This document shows, piece after piece, positions 23,142 through 28,889 of a DNA stretch of 64,000 bases (positions are counted from its first letter, which is position 1; every line of letters starts with the position of its first letter). The notes below the pieces were generated by a model. The model was not told where the DNA came from. It did not search any database and saw nothing but the letters and a program-made list of their open reading frames with translations. The position numbers were made by a program, and so were the translations under genes. Source of the DNA: Bryobacterales bacterium (lineage in GTDB: Bacteria; Acidobacteriota; Terriglobia; Bryobacterales; UBA6623); assembly GCA_022826925.1 (NCBI GenBank), contig JAJDTX010000150.1:1-64000 (forward strand), given 5' to 3'.

Positions 23142-23993
23142 TTAACTCTCGCCGTCGCACTTAACGTCAATCAGCAGGCGGCAGTGATCGCTCGATCCCC
23201 ACTCCTCAATCTCATTCATCGCGCGCACTGATACCTTCTTGTGAAATCCACGCGACGCGAACGCGTAGTCCAACTGATTCAACGCGGTTTCCGGCCCGCC
23301 CCGGTGATAGTACGTCGGTACGTTCTTTGTCTCCGGCGGTACATCGTCTGGATCGGATTCCGCTTTACGACCGTGGGGCGCCTGCGGCCCCAGAAACTCC
23401 AGCCCAAGCGCCTGCATCCTATCCCACACCGTGCGCTCGCGATCCGGCAGCGACAATCTCCAACCGGTCGACCCGTAGAACATGTTCAGATCGCCCGCAG
23501 CCAAGATCCTGTGCTTCGCAGGGTCGGTGTGACCAATGAACGTGGACAAGTCTGAAATGATCCGATGTGCGGAGGCGTCCGAGTAGATCCAACTGCTGTT
23601 GGTAGACGGATGAACCGTCAGCCAGCTTGCGTACATCGAGACCGCCACAAAAGACTCTTCCTCGTTGCCGTGCGGGAGCACTCTCGCGGCGGCGATGGTA
23701 CCGATTCCACTGACTCCCATCAAGTCCTCACCGAGTTCGCCGGTCGGAGGCACTTGTCGGTACGGCTCGACGGTGACTCGGTCAGTCAGCTTCACGACCA
23801 GCGGCCAACGGTCATACAGCTGCCGGTTCCAGAACACCCCGTCCATGTGATCGATCTGATCCACCAACTCTCCGGGCGGGCTTCCCGCTTCCTGCAAGAG
23901 CGCCAAATCCGCCTCACCGTCACGAGCCATCTGCACCAGTTCGCGCCACGGTTCCAGCCGCCTGCCGATGTTCCAGCACACCACCTTGATCAT
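23142..23993 (-). CDS. Endonuclease/exonuclease/phosphatase-family hydrolase
   Basis: 283-residue protein of the EEP (AP-endonuclease/DNase I/inositol phosphatase) fold. Metal- and phosphate-site residues are visible: Asn in VVCWNIGRR (about 4-12), Glu in LALLQEAGS, the GDLNMFYGS pair Asp-Asn, and the catalytic SSDHCR near the end. Start at ATG 23993, overlapping the upstream gmhA stop by 4 nt, makes it the last gene of the five-gene operon. EEP enzymes act on nucleic acids, phospholipids or inositol phosphates; in this sugar-phosphate operon a small phosphodiester or sugar-nucleotide substrate is conceivable (inference). Confidence 0.8.
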   Translation of the reverse strand: MIKVVCWNIGRRLEPWRELVQMARDGEADLALLQEAGSPPGELVDQIDHMDGVFWNRQLYDRWPLVVKLTDRVTVEPYRQVPPTGELGEDLMGVSGIGTIAAARVLPHGNEEESFVAVSMYASWLTVHPSTNSSWIYSDASAHRIISDLSTFIGHTDPAKHRILAAGDLNMFYGSTGWRLSLPDRERTVWDRMQALGLEFLGPQAPHGRKAESDPDDVPPETKNVPTYYHRGGPETALNQLDYAFASRGFHKKVSVRAMNEIEEWGSSDHCRLLIDVKCDGES

Positions 23994-24553
23994 CCGACCA
24001 CTTGTCCGTCCATGAAGTGATAGCAGACCATGTGGCACACGACGAAGTGCGCGTCTTCCACCCGGCCCATGTGGTCGTCTGAGATGTGGACGCTGAGATC
24101 GACGCTAGGGCGCAGGCGCCCGCCGCTGAGGCCGCTCAGGCCGACGGTGTAGCAGCCGATCGAGTTGGCGTACTCGATCGCCTGCACCACGTTCTCCGAG
24201 TTTCCGCTCCCGCTGATGGCCATCGCGATATCGCCGGGCCGCGCGAAGTTCTTCAGGGGCTCGACGAATACGCTCTCGTAGCCCACATCGTTCGAATAGG
24301 CGGTCAGGGTCGGGATCTGCTCCGCCAGCGACATGATCTTGAAGCGCTTCTGCTGGCCGTAGCTCGCGCCTTTCACGATGTCGCAAGCAAAGTGGTTGGC
24401 GGTAGCAGCGCTGCCGCCATTGCCGAACACGAAGATCTGGCGATCCTCGTCGCGCGCTCTGCGGAAGACCTCGATTAGGGCCTCGACGCGATCCAGATCG
24501 ACCGTGTCCAACGCCGCCAGCAGCCGCTGCTTGTAGTCCTTAGCGAAGGCCAT
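23990..24553 (-). CDS. gmhA: SIS-domain sugar isomerase (GmhA-like phosphoheptose isomerase)
   Basis: 187 residues, the usual GmhA size. SIS phosphosugar-binding motifs are clear: FGNGGSAATANHFACDIVKG (about 43-62) and MAISGSGNSENVVQA (about 110-124), plus VGLSGLSGGRL. GmhA converts sedoheptulose-7-phosphate to D-glycero-manno-heptose-7-phosphate, the first step toward ADP- or GDP-heptose. It is 3 nt from the upstream PfkB kinase stop, which would phosphorylate its product. The substrate is assumed from the family and the kinase neighbour. Confidence 0.85.
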   Translation of the reverse strand: MAFAKDYKQRLLAALDTVDLDRVEALIEVFRRARDEDRQIFVFGNGGSAATANHFACDIVKGASYGQQKRFKIMSLAEQIPTLTAYSNDVGYESVFVEPLKNFARPGDIAMAISGSGNSENVVQAIEYANSIGCYTVGLSGLSGGRLRPSVDLSVHISDDHMGRVEDAHFVVCHMVCYHFMDGQVVG

Positions 24554-24556
24554 CGC

Positions 24557-25552
24557 TCACATGCCCTGATCCGCGGTCGCGGCCAAGGCGAGCACCTCGT
24601 CGGGGGTCGCCCTGCCCGTGCCTAGTTTGCCGACCGTAACGCCCGCTACGATTATCCCAAACCGAAGTGCCGCTTCAGTCTCCGCACCCGCCGCTAGAGC
24701 GAGTGCGAAGCCTGCAGAAAGACTGTCCCCCGCTCCGCACGGATCCACCGCCTTGGTAGCTTCCGACACCGGCAGCAACCGTTTCCCTTCACTGTCGAAG
24801 AGCCACGCTCCCTGGTCAGCCGCCGTGACCACAAGCGCCGGCCCTCCGATCGTCCGGCGCAGCCGCTCGAAGTCGACCACTCCGAATTGCCTCTGGCAGG
24901 CGGCCGCAGCCTCCGACTCGTTCGGCGTAACAATGACGTCGCGAAAGTGCTCTACACGCCGACGAGAATCGGCTACGAAGACGGCACGGCTGGCCACGGA
25001 CGCACTCCGACAAACGGCCTCCCGGATCGCATGCGTGACAGTCCCGCCGTGATCGGTCTCCGCTTGATCGGCCACGATCACGGCATCGAACTCGTCCAAG
25101 CACTCCTCCAGACTCGCAACGATCGCCCGCTCGGCATGAGCGCACAGCGGCGCTGTGTTGATGAAATCGACGCGAGGAAGATCCTCGATGCCTGTCTCGC
25201 AGTTGATCAGCTTCGTGTAGGTAAAGGTTTGCAACTCCTCGGACTCGACCAGTAGGTCATGCTCGATTGAGGCCCTCGCCAGCGCACGGCGCAAGTCGAG
25301 TCCGGCGCCATCCGCTCCGATGGCTCCGAGGACGCTGACCCGGCCAGCGCCCAAGGCTGCCAGGTTGCCGGCCACCGTGCCTCCTGCCCCGGGCGTCGAC
25401 ATGGTCTCCCGGACTGCGCACCGCGGGATTCCGGTCTCACGCGAGGGCTCTGCCAACGCAGGATCGTACTTGCACCACCGATCGAGGCAGATATCGCCGA
25501 TCACCAGCGCTCGGACGCTCGATGCACCTGCCAGGATTTCGGAGCAAGTCAT
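24557..25552 (-). CDS. PfkB-family sugar kinase (RfaE1/HldE kinase-like)
   Basis: 331-residue ribokinase-family kinase. The catalytic/anion-hole motif DPCGAGDSLSAGFALAL is near 268-284; the N-terminal glycine-rich motif is GAGGTVAGNLAALGA; VTPNESEA is the family's Asn-Glu segment. The opening (VRALVIGDICLDRWCKYDPALAEPS) follows the HldE/RfaE kinase pattern of heptose-7-phosphate 1-kinases. Only the kinase domain is present; the nucleotidyltransferase half of bifunctional HldE is missing and not supplied in the operon. Start overlaps the upstream gene (ATGA). Confidence 0.83.
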   Translation of the reverse strand: MTCSEILAGASSVRALVIGDICLDRWCKYDPALAEPSRETGIPRCAVRETMSTPGAGGTVAGNLAALGAGRVSVLGAIGADGAGLDLRRALARASIEHDLLVESEELQTFTYTKLINCETGIEDLPRVDFINTAPLCAHAERAIVASLEECLDEFDAVIVADQAETDHGGTVTHAIREAVCRSASVASRAVFVADSRRRVEHFRDVIVTPNESEAAAACQRQFGVVDFERLRRTIGGPALVVTAADQGAWLFDSEGKRLLPVSEATKAVDPCGAGDSLSAGFALALAAGAETEAALRFGIIVAGVTVGKLGTGRATPDEVLALAATADQGM

Positions 25553-26535
25553 TCCGCGCGGCTGTCAGCCGCCGCCAGGACTGCCTTGCGGAGCGCCGGA
25601 ACCGTCACGCGATGGTCTCCGCATACGTAGAGGCTTTGCCCGCCATCTGCGACCGTCCGCACGAGAATCGTCTTGTGCGGGCGGAAGTAATAGCCGGGGT
25701 CGGACTTGGGCAGCTCCGTGTGGACGTCGCCCTGGATCGGCACCAAGTCGAAGACCGCAGTCATGAAATCGGCGATTCGGCGGCCTTCTTGGTGGGCCAC
25801 GTTGCGCGCCATCGACAGCGCCTTGAGATAGACCTCAGGGCCCATGATCGCCGACCCGAGGCTAACCATGATGCCGCCTTCCAAGCTCTCAACCGCCTTG
25901 GTGTATACGAGAAAGTCCCGGTAGCTGGCCTGCCCGTAGGCTGCGCCATCGCAGTTGGGGTGCTCGTGGGTGATGTCGTAGCCGACACCCACGTGGACAG
26001 TGACCGGGATGTCCAACTCGTAGGCATTGGCGAGGATGCTTATGTCGCGATGCGGGAATTCCTCGGCCACGATGCGGCGCCCGAAGTTCTCGCCCAAGCC
26101 CAAGCCCAGCCGAGCCGCGTCCACTGCCCAATCGTTCAGGATCGAGGTCTCGTCCCAGAGCCCGAACTCCCCGGTGCGGATGTAACGCGCGACGCTCTCG
26201 GTTGTGGCGCCGATGCGCGCCAGCTCGAAATCATGAATGGCACCGGCACCGTTCATGGCCACGTGCGTGAACGCTCCGCGCCGCAGCAGGTCGATCACTT
26301 GTCGCGAGACGCCCGACTTGATCACGTGCGCGCCCATCATCAAGATCCGCGCACTGCGATCGCCGGCAACGAGCCTTGGCGCCACGACTTCGAGGGATTC
26401 CCGCAACCGCTGGTCAGCCTCCTCAACCTGCTGGTCAAGCTCCAGCAGATAACCGAGATCCATGTCGTGCGCGCGCTCGGCCAGCGGGCGGATGTTCAGA
26501 CGCGAACGGTCAAAGGCCGGGTATTTCGATTGCAT
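25549..26535 (-). CDS. Deoxyhypusine-synthase-like protein of unknown function in sugar-phosphate operon
   Basis: 328-residue soluble protein. The segments ILMMGAHVIKSGVSRQVIDL, HVAMNGAGAIHDFELARIGA and GIMVSLGSAIMGPEVYLKAL are Rossmann-like and resemble the NAD-binding core of deoxyhypusine synthases, but the bacterium has no obvious eIF5A-type target here. Other conserved-looking parts are HVGVGYDITHEHPNCDGAA and PIQGDVHTELPKSDPGYYF. It lies between a HAD phosphatase and a PfkB kinase with 38-nt and -4-nt spacings, so a role in the same sugar or sugar-derivative pathway is likely. Family assignment is from pattern memory, not a search. No Tat or membrane signal. Confidence 0.55.
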   Translation of the reverse strand: MQSKYPAFDRSRLNIRPLAERAHDMDLGYLLELDQQVEEADQRLRESLEVVAPRLVAGDRSARILMMGAHVIKSGVSRQVIDLLRRGAFTHVAMNGAGAIHDFELARIGATTESVARYIRTGEFGLWDETSILNDWAVDAARLGLGLGENFGRRIVAEEFPHRDISILANAYELDIPVTVHVGVGYDITHEHPNCDGAAYGQASYRDFLVYTKAVESLEGGIMVSLGSAIMGPEVYLKALSMARNVAHQEGRRIADFMTAVFDLVPIQGDVHTELPKSDPGYYFRPHKTILVRTVADGGQSLYVCGDHRVTVPALRKAVLAAADSRAE

Positions 26536-26573
26536 GTTGAAGAGCCACCGAGGCGGAACTTCGGGCAGTCCGG

Positions 26574-27458
26574 TCAGGAAGCGCCGAACAGGGCCGCCAT
26601 AAGTTCATTGTGCGCATTGAAGTTGGGCACGATCCAATCAGCGCCGACGGCAGCAAGCCGATTGCGCTTGACCTTGTCCACGTCCACGCAGTCGGGCTCA
26701 TCGGTGGCGACACCCACCGCGCTGCCGCCGACTGTCTTGACGACCTCGATCTCCACGAAGCCGTCGCCGAAGCCCAGGAACTCGGATCCCTCGTAGTCGC
26801 TTTCGCTGATGATGCGCTCCACCAAGATCTTCTTCGAGAAGTTCTTGTAGTCGTCCAACGCTCCGTGCATTCCGCCGGCAAAGTACGAGTCGATGCGCAA
26901 CAGGCGCGCCTCTTCCTGCATGTACGGCTGGTCCGTACCGCTTGCCAAGTACAGCCTCAAGCCGCGCTCCAGCATCGCATCCAGCAGGCGGCGCGCACCG
27001 GGCACCATCAATTCGTCAGCATCGACGTGTCCGGACCGCAAATCCTCGCGACGATGGCGGATCTTGTCCATCAAGAGGTCCAAGTAGACGTGCTTGTATT
27101 CCAGCGGATCCTTGGGCGTCCCGCCCCGCTTGGCAATCTGCTCGGCGAACTCGATCATCTGGTAAATCGTCTGCCGCCCTGTCAGGTGGCCGACATACCC
27201 CTCGACCAACTCCGTAAGCTCCTGCTCCGACTCGCCGGTGCGCAGATCGAGCAGCGTCTCGACCATCATCGGCACCATTACGTCGAACCATCCCGCACGG
27301 ATCAGGGATAGCGTCCCGTCGAAGTCGAAGAGGCCGACGCGGGCACCTGCCGCGCTCGATGCCGGGTCGAGGATTTCAAGGGGTGTGCAAGCCAAGCTCC
27401 AGTGTGGCAAATCCCGGTTGGAGGTACTGCAAGTCCGCTTCCCTCGGCCTCGCTGCAT
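26574..27458 (-). CDS. HAD-superfamily phosphatase of the sugar-phosphate operon
   Basis: HAD hydrolase with all four motifs: VGLFDFDGTLSLI (nucleophile and acid Asp), LYLASGTDQPY, Lys in YKNFSKKILVERI, and GFGDGFVEIE. A helical cap insertion (about 60-150) lies after motif I. The start is uncertain: the frame is open upstream to 27875, but that part overlaps the divergent Gfo/Idh gene; ATG 27458 (294 residues) is used here, and the real start could be nearer the domain at about 27340. First gene of the operon. In heptose pathways a HAD phosphatase (GmhB) removes the 7-phosphate; this one has a larger cap than GmhB, so the substrate may differ. Confidence 0.75.
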   Translation of the reverse strand: MQRGRGKRTCSTSNRDLPHWSLACTPLEILDPASSAAGARVGLFDFDGTLSLIRAGWFDVMVPMMVETLLDLRTGESEQELTELVEGYVGHLTGRQTIYQMIEFAEQIAKRGGTPKDPLEYKHVYLDLLMDKIRHRREDLRSGHVDADELMVPGARRLLDAMLERGLRLYLASGTDQPYMQEEARLLRIDSYFAGGMHGALDDYKNFSKKILVERIISESDYEGSEFLGFGDGFVEIEVVKTVGGSAVGVATDEPDCVDVDKVKRNRLAAVGADWIVPNFNAHNELMAALFGAS

Positions 27459-27725: not shown

Positions 27726-28889
27726 ATGGCAAAAGAACTGCGCATCGGAATGATCGGCTACGGCTTCATGGGCCGCGCCCACTCGAACGCCTACAAGCGG
27801 CTCAATGACTTCTTCCCGGTCGAGCACCGCCCGGTGCTGCAGGCAGTCGCAGCCCGCAATCGGGACAACGCGCAATCATTCGCCGACAACTGGGGCTACC
27901 AGCGGATCGAGACCGACTGGCGCAAAGTGGCCACCGCCGATGACGTGGACTTGGTGGACGTCTGTGCCCCCAATCACCTGCACCTGGACATCGTTCTCGC
28001 AGCCGCCGAGGCGGGCAAGATGATCTGCTGCGAGAAGCCGTTGGCGATGTCCGTCGCCGAAGCCGAGCAGATGGTCGAAGCCGTCGAGAAGCACGGCGTG
28101 CCCAACATGGTCTGGTACAACTACCGGCGCGTGCCCTCGATTTCGCTGGCCAAGCAGATCGTTGACGAGGGTCGCATCGGCAAGCCGTTTCACTACCGCG
28201 CCACGTACTTGCAGGACTGGACCATTTCCGAGGACGTCCCCCAAGGGGGCGCTGGAACGTGGCGCCTAGATGTGGACGTGGCCGGCTCCGGCGTAACCGG
28301 CGACCTGCTCGCCCACTCCATCGACTCGGCGATGTGGCTCAACGGTCCCATCGCTCGGGTCGTCGCCAGCACGCGCACGTTCGTCACCGAGCGCATGCAT
28401 GCCGATACCGGCGAAGTGCAGCCCGTCGGTATCGACGACGCCTGCATGTTCCTAGCCGAGTTCGCAAACGGGTCGATGGGCACGTTCGAGTCCACGCGCT
28501 ATGCCCGCGGCCGCAAGAACTACAACACGCTCGAGCTCAACGGGGCGGACGGGTCGGTGTTCTTCGACTTGGAGGATCCAGAATACCTGCACTTCTTCGA
28601 GTACCAGCAAAAGCAGTCGGGGAAGAAGGTCGAGGATCACCTCACAGGCTGGCGCAAGATCCACGTGACGAATTCGGAGCACCCCTACATGGACAAGTAC
28701 TGGGTGCCCGGGACAACGATCGGATACGAACACACCTTCCTCAATGCCTTGGCGGACTTCGTGGCAGGCGTCGAGTCCGGCAACCACACCCAGCCCGATT
28801 TCAAGTGCGCGCTCCAGACGCAAAGGGTGTGCGACGCCGTGATCGAGTCCGGCCGCACCCGAGAATGGGTTGAGACAGGAGCACAGTAG
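27726..28889 (+). CDS. Cytoplasmic Gfo/Idh/MocA-family oxidoreductase
   Basis: 387-residue protein without export signal. N-terminal Rossmann motif MIGYGFMGRAHSNAY (about 9-23), the family motif CCEKPLAMSVAEAEQM (about 99-114), and the catalytic region GGAGTWRLDVDVAGSG, DLLAHSIDSAMWLNG, the latter with the usual His. It uses NAD(P) to oxidise or reduce a cyclitol or sugar; substrate unknown. Strong ribosome site (GAGGAAAT) before ATG 27726. Divergent from the minus-strand sugar-phosphate operon, sharing the 27459-27725 promoter region, so co-regulation is possible. Confidence 0.88.
   Translation: MAKELRIGMIGYGFMGRAHSNAYKRLNDFFPVEHRPVLQAVAARNRDNAQSFADNWGYQRIETDWRKVATADDVDLVDVCAPNHLHLDIVLAAAEAGKMICCEKPLAMSVAEAEQMVEAVEKHGVPNMVWYNYRRVPSISLAKQIVDEGRIGKPFHYRATYLQDWTISEDVPQGGAGTWRLDVDVAGSGVTGDLLAHSIDSAMWLNGPIARVVASTRTFVTERMHADTGEVQPVGIDDACMFLAEFANGSMGTFESTRYARGRKNYNTLELNGADGSVFFDLEDPEYLHFFEYQQKQSGKKVEDHLTGWRKIHVTNSEHPYMDKYWVPGTTIGYEHTFLNALADFVAGVESGNHTQPDFKCALQTQRVCDAVIESGRTREWVETGAQ

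What the first reader, a model, noticed from the sequence alone, without database searches (positions are those of the whole stretch)
23142..27458. Five-gene sugar-phosphate operon with a deoxyhypusine-synthase-like gene
Seen: a tight minus-strand operon in the order HAD phosphatase, Rossmann-like 'NGAGAIHDFE' protein, PfkB kinase, GmhA-type isomerase, EEP-fold hydrolase (gaps 38, -4, 3-4, -4 nt). Known: GmhA, HldE-type kinase and a HAD phosphatase are the heptose pathway. Here the nucleotidyltransferase is absent, and a protein recalling deoxyhypusine synthase plus a phosphodiesterase-like EEP protein take the remaining slots. Inference: a heptose-derived or other sugar derivative pathway with NAD chemistry may be present. 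It is the most enzyme-rich unknown locus of the window.
Basis: partly seen in the sequence, partly recalled or inferred. Interest (0 to 1): 0.8.

Follow-up and report, generated by a model that had tools for sequence, protein, structure and literature searches.

The report
Sugar-phosphate operon with unknown NAD-fold enzyme
This is a small bacterial operon that probably builds an unusual heptose-like sugar phosphate, and its puzzling gene belongs to a widespread, uncharacterised enzyme family shaped like deoxyhypusine synthase that may be an unrecognised sugar epimerase.

Summary
The operon is real: five minus-strand genes with the stated spacings. Four (HAD phosphatase, the 328-residue protein, PfkB kinase, SIS isomerase) belong to a conserved module; the fifth (EEP hydrolase) looks like a local passenger. 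The 328-residue protein is a member of NCBIfam's uncharacterised GSU2086 family. Its confident model has the deoxyhypusine-synthase/ArgZ-AgrE fold, whose solved members include NAD+ complexes, but it does not look like deoxyhypusine synthase itself. Gene fusions link the family to the isomerase and to the phosphatase. Its canonical branch lies beside GmhA and is almost mutually exclusive with HldD, the heptose 6-epimerase (0 of 89 genomes in Acidobacteriota; 9 of at most 119 in a second phylum). I propose hydride-borrowing epimerisation of a heptose-type sugar phosphate. The window belongs to another branch that shows no HldD association, and its isomerase has two of GmhA's four zinc ligands exchanged (16 of 16 isomerases compared from that branch, 0 of 47 others), so its sugar is probably different and is unknown. 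No biochemistry turned up in my searches. Verdict: a new variant of the heptose-type pathway around an uncharacterised enzyme family; function inferred, not shown.

The parts
26574..27458 (-). HAD phosphatase with a helical cap domain; true start probably some 25-30 codons further in
   Evidence: PF00702; HAD motifs invariant in 29 aligned sequences, window included; model pLDDT 90, nearest folds Rv3400, YniC, also CbbY and beta-phosphoglucomutase; no GmhB model hit
25549..26535 (-). GSU2086-family protein, deoxyhypusine synthase/ArgZ-AgrE fold; proposed hydride-borrowing sugar-phosphate epimerase
24557..25552 (-). PfkB sugar kinase, nearest to heptose-7-phosphate kinase
   Evidence: PF00294; best PDB match by sequence 4e84, D-beta-D-heptose 7-phosphate kinase, E 3.9e-15
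23990..24553 (-). SIS sugar-phosphate isomerase, GmhA-like, with H54, D58, E166, H174 at the zinc-ligand positions; the only match to itself in its genome
   Evidence: SIS_2; GmhA 5i01 E 5e-22; ligand comparison; single match
23142..23993 (-). EEP-fold hydrolase, overlapping the SIS gene by 4 nt but not part of the conserved module
   Evidence: PF03372; near 1 of 151 family copies; homologues in 4 of 297 phylum genomes, own included

Best explanation
A four-enzyme route to a heptose-type sugar 1-phosphate. The SIS protein interconverts a ketose phosphate (sedoheptulose 7-phosphate or a close relative) and its aldose phosphate; the GSU2086-family protein inverts one carbinol carbon by taking a hydride onto a bound cofactor, most likely NAD+, and giving it back to the other face; the PfkB kinase phosphorylates C1; the HAD phosphatase removes the terminal phosphate; an HldC-like transferase elsewhere in the genome may activate the product. 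In the family's canonical branch the same enzyme, next to GmhA, does the job that HldD does elsewhere, but at the sugar-phosphate stage. Shown: operon, fold, recurrent module, fusions, mutual exclusion. Inferred: cofactor binding, epimerisation, the carbon, the sugar. My odds: one pathway for the four genes 0.85; hydride-borrowing sugar-phosphate enzyme 0.55; C6 epimerase in the canonical branch 0.4, in the window 0.25.
Against: No cofactor or activity has been tested. Nine genomes of the second phylum carry both canonical GSU2086 and HldD. The window branch shows no relation to HldD: 2 of 9 Acidobacteriota genomes, 2.0 expected. The exclusion weakens as relatives are merged: by genus 2 shared (73 and 19 of 167, p 0.002), by family 3 shared (41 and 10 of 81, 5.1 expected, p 0.19), so shared descent explains part of it. 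A heptose nucleotidyltransferase-like hit is present in 90 of 93 family-bearing Acidobacteriota at E 1e-45 or better, but such genes are common anyway (190 of 297 over cut-off), so this says little. Insertions in one Geobacter operon can have polar effects. The window's SIS and kinase fall below the curated heptose cut-offs, and the SIS has two zinc ligands changed, so the sugar may not be a heptose. The window HAD is not GmhB by its models. 18 of 59 window-branch copies have none of the searched partners nearby. HldE in the canonical branch would have to accept the epimer.
Confidence: 0.45

Rival explanations
1. The window branch makes a sugar that is not a heptose (hexose, pentose or octose series) by the same logic: isomerase, NAD-type enzyme, 1-kinase, phosphatase.
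For: At the four zinc-ligand positions, H-D-E-H in 13 and Q-D-E-H in 3 of 16 window-branch isomerases compared, H-E-Q-H in 47 of 47 others; scores below heptose cut-offs; members in Clostridia; no tie to HldD.
Against: Best solved relatives of SIS and kinase are still GmhA and heptose-7-phosphate kinase; some window-branch copies sit beside an HldE-type transferase (10 of 59) or GT9 (2 of 59).
Confidence: 0.25
2. GSU2086 works directly on the nucleotide sugar like HldD, and its closeness to GmhA only reflects a shared pathway.
For: Mutual exclusion with HldD.
Against: The fusions found are to the isomerase and the phosphatase, none to a nucleotidyltransferase; an HldE-type transferase lies near only 10 of 59 window-branch copies and 0 of 20 of the Clostridia-type branch.
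Confidence: 0.1
3. GSU2086 is a helper or regulator of GmhA with no chemistry of its own, marking species that use only D-glycero heptose and so lack HldD.
For: Adjacency and fusion with SIS; HldD absence fits a D,D-heptose chemotype.
Against: 36 positions, with several His, Asp, Glu, Arg and one Lys, are at least 95% conserved in all three branches, as in an enzyme; 11 Poribacteria copies stand without SIS nearby.
Confidence: 0.15
4. GSU2086 is a polyamine enzyme (deoxyhypusine or homospermidine synthase type).
For: Shared fold and weak hits to deoxyhypusine synthase and homospermidine models in relatives.
Against: Lysine is not among the four commonest letters at the recalled catalytic position in any branch; sugar-phosphate neighbours and fusions.
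Confidence: 0.03

Closest known systems
GSU2086 family (NCBIfam NF052581), named after Geobacter sulfurreducens GSU2086
   Same: Member by curated score (355 bits, cut-off 250); same kind of neighbours (kinase, SIS isomerase)
   Different: Window protein is in a separate branch, 35-42% identical to 22 other Acidobacteriota members aligned, with a capped HAD and a single-domain PfkB beside it
ArgZ/AgrE ornithine cyclodeaminase domain and LOR/SDH proteins (6lrg, 6juy, 3c2q)
   Different: AgrE and ArgZ act on arginine and ornithine and carry a further dihydrolase domain; identity 12-18% in the structural alignments
Deoxyhypusine synthase (PF01916)
   Different: No lysine at the recalled catalytic position; no polyamine or eIF5A context seen
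ADP-heptose pathway GmhA-HldE-GmhB-HldD
   Same: Isomerase, 1-kinase, phosphatase logic; SIS and kinase nearest to GmhA and heptose-7-phosphate kinase
   Different: Phosphatase is a capped HAD, not GmhB; no HldD over cut-off in the genome (genome 93% complete); transferase not in the operon; SIS zinc ligands changed; extra enzyme of deoxyhypusine-synthase fold

Membership tests
GSU2086 family (NF052581) | Score over curated cut-off 250 bits | tested here: met
   355.2 bits, E 3e-106
Deoxyhypusine synthase | Deoxyhypusine synthase fold | tested here: met
Deoxyhypusine synthase | PF01916 match over gathering score | tested here: not met
   No hit for the window protein up to E 1; 21 of 23 aligned members hit weakly, best E 3e-6
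Deoxyhypusine synthase | Catalytic lysine (human K329; its place in the sequence recalled, counted back from the C-terminal Pro without a gap) | tested here: not met
   Position 303 is Tyr in the window; Y, H, S, A and F lead elsewhere, Lys is not among the four commonest letters of any branch. No structural overlay was made
ArgZ/AgrE C-terminal domain | NAD+-binding domain of this fold | tested here: inconclusive
   Fold matches; cofactor binding cannot be tested here
GmhA | TIGR00441 over 209 bits | tested here: not met
   102 bits
GmhA | Zinc ligands His, Glu, His and a neighbour's Gln (PMC5387315) | tested here: not met
   His54, Asp58, His174, Glu166 at these positions
HldE/HldA heptose kinase | TIGR02198 over 345 bits | tested here: not met
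   151 bits, still the best NCBIfam model
GmhB | TIGR00213 or PRK08942 match | tested here: not met
   Neither among the hits up to E 0.01; model has a helical insert after the first strand
HldD function | Epimerises C6 of the heptose unit | not testable with these tools
   Only indirect: mutual exclusion of the canonical branch

The most novel reading that the evidence does not exclude
The GSU2086 family is an unrecognised class of sugar-phosphate epimerase on the deoxyhypusine synthase/AgrE fold, a non-orthologous replacement of HldD that sets heptose stereochemistry before nucleotide activation; the window branch is a sister enzyme serving a second, still unnamed activated-sugar pathway found in bacteria from Acidobacteriota to Clostridia.
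Probability: 0.35. Interest if true: 0.82.

Novelty: new variant of a known kind. Interest (0 to 1): 0.6.

Why it matters
The family is over its cut-off in 93 of 297 sampled Acidobacteriota genomes and 121 of 198 genomes of a second phylum, yet carries only a locus-tag name. If it replaces HldD, many genomes now read as lacking a step of heptose synthesis would be complete, and a fold known from polyamine and amino-acid chemistry would gain a sugar branch. The claim can be tested with two purified proteins and one sugar phosphate.

Tried and rejected
Rejected: EEP as a pathway enzyme. Rejected: long GSU2086 ORFs of the second phylum (L184, L186-L188) as GmhA fusions; the ORF runs through the neighbouring gmhA in another frame, and Pfam finds no SIS in the two scanned, L184 and L186. 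Rejected: the window as an HldD replacement in the same sense as the canonical branch, because its branch shows no exclusion. The full five-gene order was found only in the window among 151 copies. The two Acidobacteriota exceptions to HldD exclusion (G024, G050) carry only the window branch. No relative of EEP or HAD among solved structures by single-sequence search. The 328-aa protein's peptide patterns match no IMG/VR contig, and EEP has no match in the plasmid collection. No defence model (PADLOC) hits the 328-aa protein or EEP.

Literature: ten searches of an open-licence library gave one paper naming GSU2086, PMC5585712 (passages read). PMC5387315, PMC11056994 and PMC7705670 were seen as passages, all other papers as search listings. 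No paper of that library holds deoxyhypusine synthase, heptose, lipopolysaccharide and operon together, or hypusine and GmhA together; subscription journals are mostly missing from it.

Of 233 loci held, 150 plus the window entered the tree and context counts; left out were first-look loci (L001-L031, L164-L183, L204-L224, the last range holding also L219 and L220, stretches of the own genome), L142 (same place as L229), L157 (the G024 copy) and loci without the gene or extra flanks (L151, L153, L154, L156, L163, L200, L225-L227). Branch membership was typed from the tree; the third group is everything outside the other two, L105 and L096 included. In the second phylum all 11 genomes with both genes were assigned to a branch, and some low-scoring others, but not all 121; so 119 canonical is an upper bound. 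In one search I sent 50 of the 80 loci. My notebook says 17 of 18 loci with GmhA; the recount is 18 of 18. The 15 of 15 isomerases became 16 of 16 after L160 was added.
Full report
On the minus strand five genes lie head to tail: HAD phosphatase, a 328-residue protein, PfkB kinase, SIS isomerase, EEP hydrolase, with gaps of 38, -4, 3 and -4 nt. HAD motifs are invariant in 29 aligned sequences and the PfkB GAGD motif in 21, the window included in both. A consensus scan found two promoter-like sites and one terminator-like site in the region, all on the other strand.

The module. The one scan of genome contigs gave 80 loci. A tree of 151 domains shows the window's branch (59 rows, support 100), a branch of Clostridia, Chloroflexota, archaea and others (20 rows, support 91, drawn open), and the remaining 72 rows, mainly the canonical branch. 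HAD, GSU2086 and PfkB stand in that order on one strand within 4 kb in 27 of 59 window-branch copies, in 7 of them followed by SIS; 18 of 59 have none of the searched partners, 11 of these being Poribacteria. In the second branch HAD is near 15 of 20 and PfkB near 16 of 20. In the rest SIS is near 38 of 72 and this HAD near none. Proteins that fuse GSU2086 with SIS (L080, L084, L085), HAD with GSU2086 (L087) and SIS with HAD (L054) tie three of the enzymes to one pathway. EEP is near only the window's copy; in the three other phylum genomes that have it, none of the searched pathway genes lies in the stretch read, and in one it lies beside an AbiE pair.

Sugar. The best solved relatives by sequence are GmhA (5i01, 5e-22) for SIS and heptose-7-phosphate kinase (4e84, 4e-15) for the kinase. 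Both score well under the curated heptose cut-offs. In 5i01 zinc is held by H61, E65 and H183 and by Q175 of a neighbour, and E65 and H183 matter for LOS synthesis (PMC5387315, passages). The window has His54, Asp58, His174 and Glu166 there. The pattern follows the branches: H-D-E-H in 13 and Q-D-E-H in 3 of 16 window-branch isomerases compared, H-E-Q-H in 47 of 47 others, one of these (L153) from a genome with HldD and no GSU2086 over cut-off. The isomerase thus changed together with its GSU2086 partner, which argues for a related but different substrate. The HAD has a helical cap, like beta-phosphoglucomutase, CbbY and YniC, and no GmhB model hits it.

Link to HldD. In 297 Acidobacteriota genomes GSU2086 is over cut-off in 93 and HldD in 66, together in 2 (20.7 expected, p 4e-10); by genus 73 and 19 of 167, together in 2 (p 0.002); by family 41 and 10 of 81, together in 3 (5.1 expected, p 0.19). 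The two genome-level exceptions carry only the window branch, so the canonical branch and HldD overlap in 0 of 89 (19.8 expected). In 198 genomes of a second phylum (Desulfobacterota by inference) the numbers are 121, 45 and 11; two of the 11 are window-branch only, leaving 9 of at most 119 (27.0 expected). One family shows the swap: L152 has GmhB, GSU2086, HldE, GmhA in a row, while the two sampled genomes of another genus of that family have HldD. In genus g44, G105 has GSU2086 and no HldD, ten sister species have HldD, and one (G149) has neither over cut-off. Among 50 named genomes that carry the family, 4 have HldD, and all 4 carry the window branch only. The window branch shows no exclusion in Acidobacteriota (2 of 9, 2.0 expected). 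Shared ancestry inflates the genome-level p values.

Function in a living cell. In G. sulfurreducens, transposon insertions in hldE, GSU2086 and gmhA gave log2 ratios of -3.1, -3.2 and -3.7 after growth on electrodes (PMC5585712, passages). This fits a shared role with heptose enzymes, though polar effects within one gene cluster are possible.

The window genome (93% complete) has one copy of the family, one match to its SIS, no HldD over cut-off, and a stand-alone HldC-like transferase, 176 bits against a cut-off of 181.5, between a putative RNA ligase gene and mfd (these two named by eye). The simplest reading is a route from ketose phosphate to activated sugar with GSU2086 as the stereochemistry-setting step. 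Which carbon is inverted, and whether the sugar has seven carbons, is open.

Novelty. The family is named but has no assigned function in the sources searched. The pathway logic is known; the enzyme and its place are not. I rate it a new variant of a known kind.

Noticed in passing
window 27726-28889: Divergent GFO/IDH/MocA oxidoreductase, nearest to levoglucosan dehydrogenase (332 bits, cut-off 650); it falls in a cluster seen in 12 of the loci compared, window included, but this family is common and no background was measured.
   Followed up: partly
window 23142-23993; L225, L226, L227: Rare EEP protein in 4 of 297 phylum genomes; 3 of the 4 also carry the window-branch GSU2086 (two of them one genus, on other contigs), and in the fourth it lies beside an AbiEi/AbiEii pair.
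   Followed up: partly
L069-L072, L074-L079: Poribacteria keep a window-branch GSU2086 gene, mostly right after an SMC-type gene, with no kinase, phosphatase or isomerase of this kind nearby.
   Followed up: no
G174, G150, G106, G053, G087, G205, G027: HldD matches in these seven genomes of one genus (g37) hold one in-frame TAG or TGA within the matched stretch; may be an end effect or something odder.
   Followed up: no
L098, L109: Woesearchaeota with GT9, GmhA-type SIS, GSU2086, PfkB, GmhB-type and HldE-type transferase hits in one stretch, a heptose-like set in small archaeal genomes.
   Followed up: no
NCBIfam TIGR00300, hit by L084 and L152 GSU2086 proteins: This relative of the fold is described as nickel-pincer-nucleotide-dependent ornithine cyclodeaminase, so the hydride carrier of GSU2086 need not be NAD; a paper search for the two terms found nothing.
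   Followed up: partly
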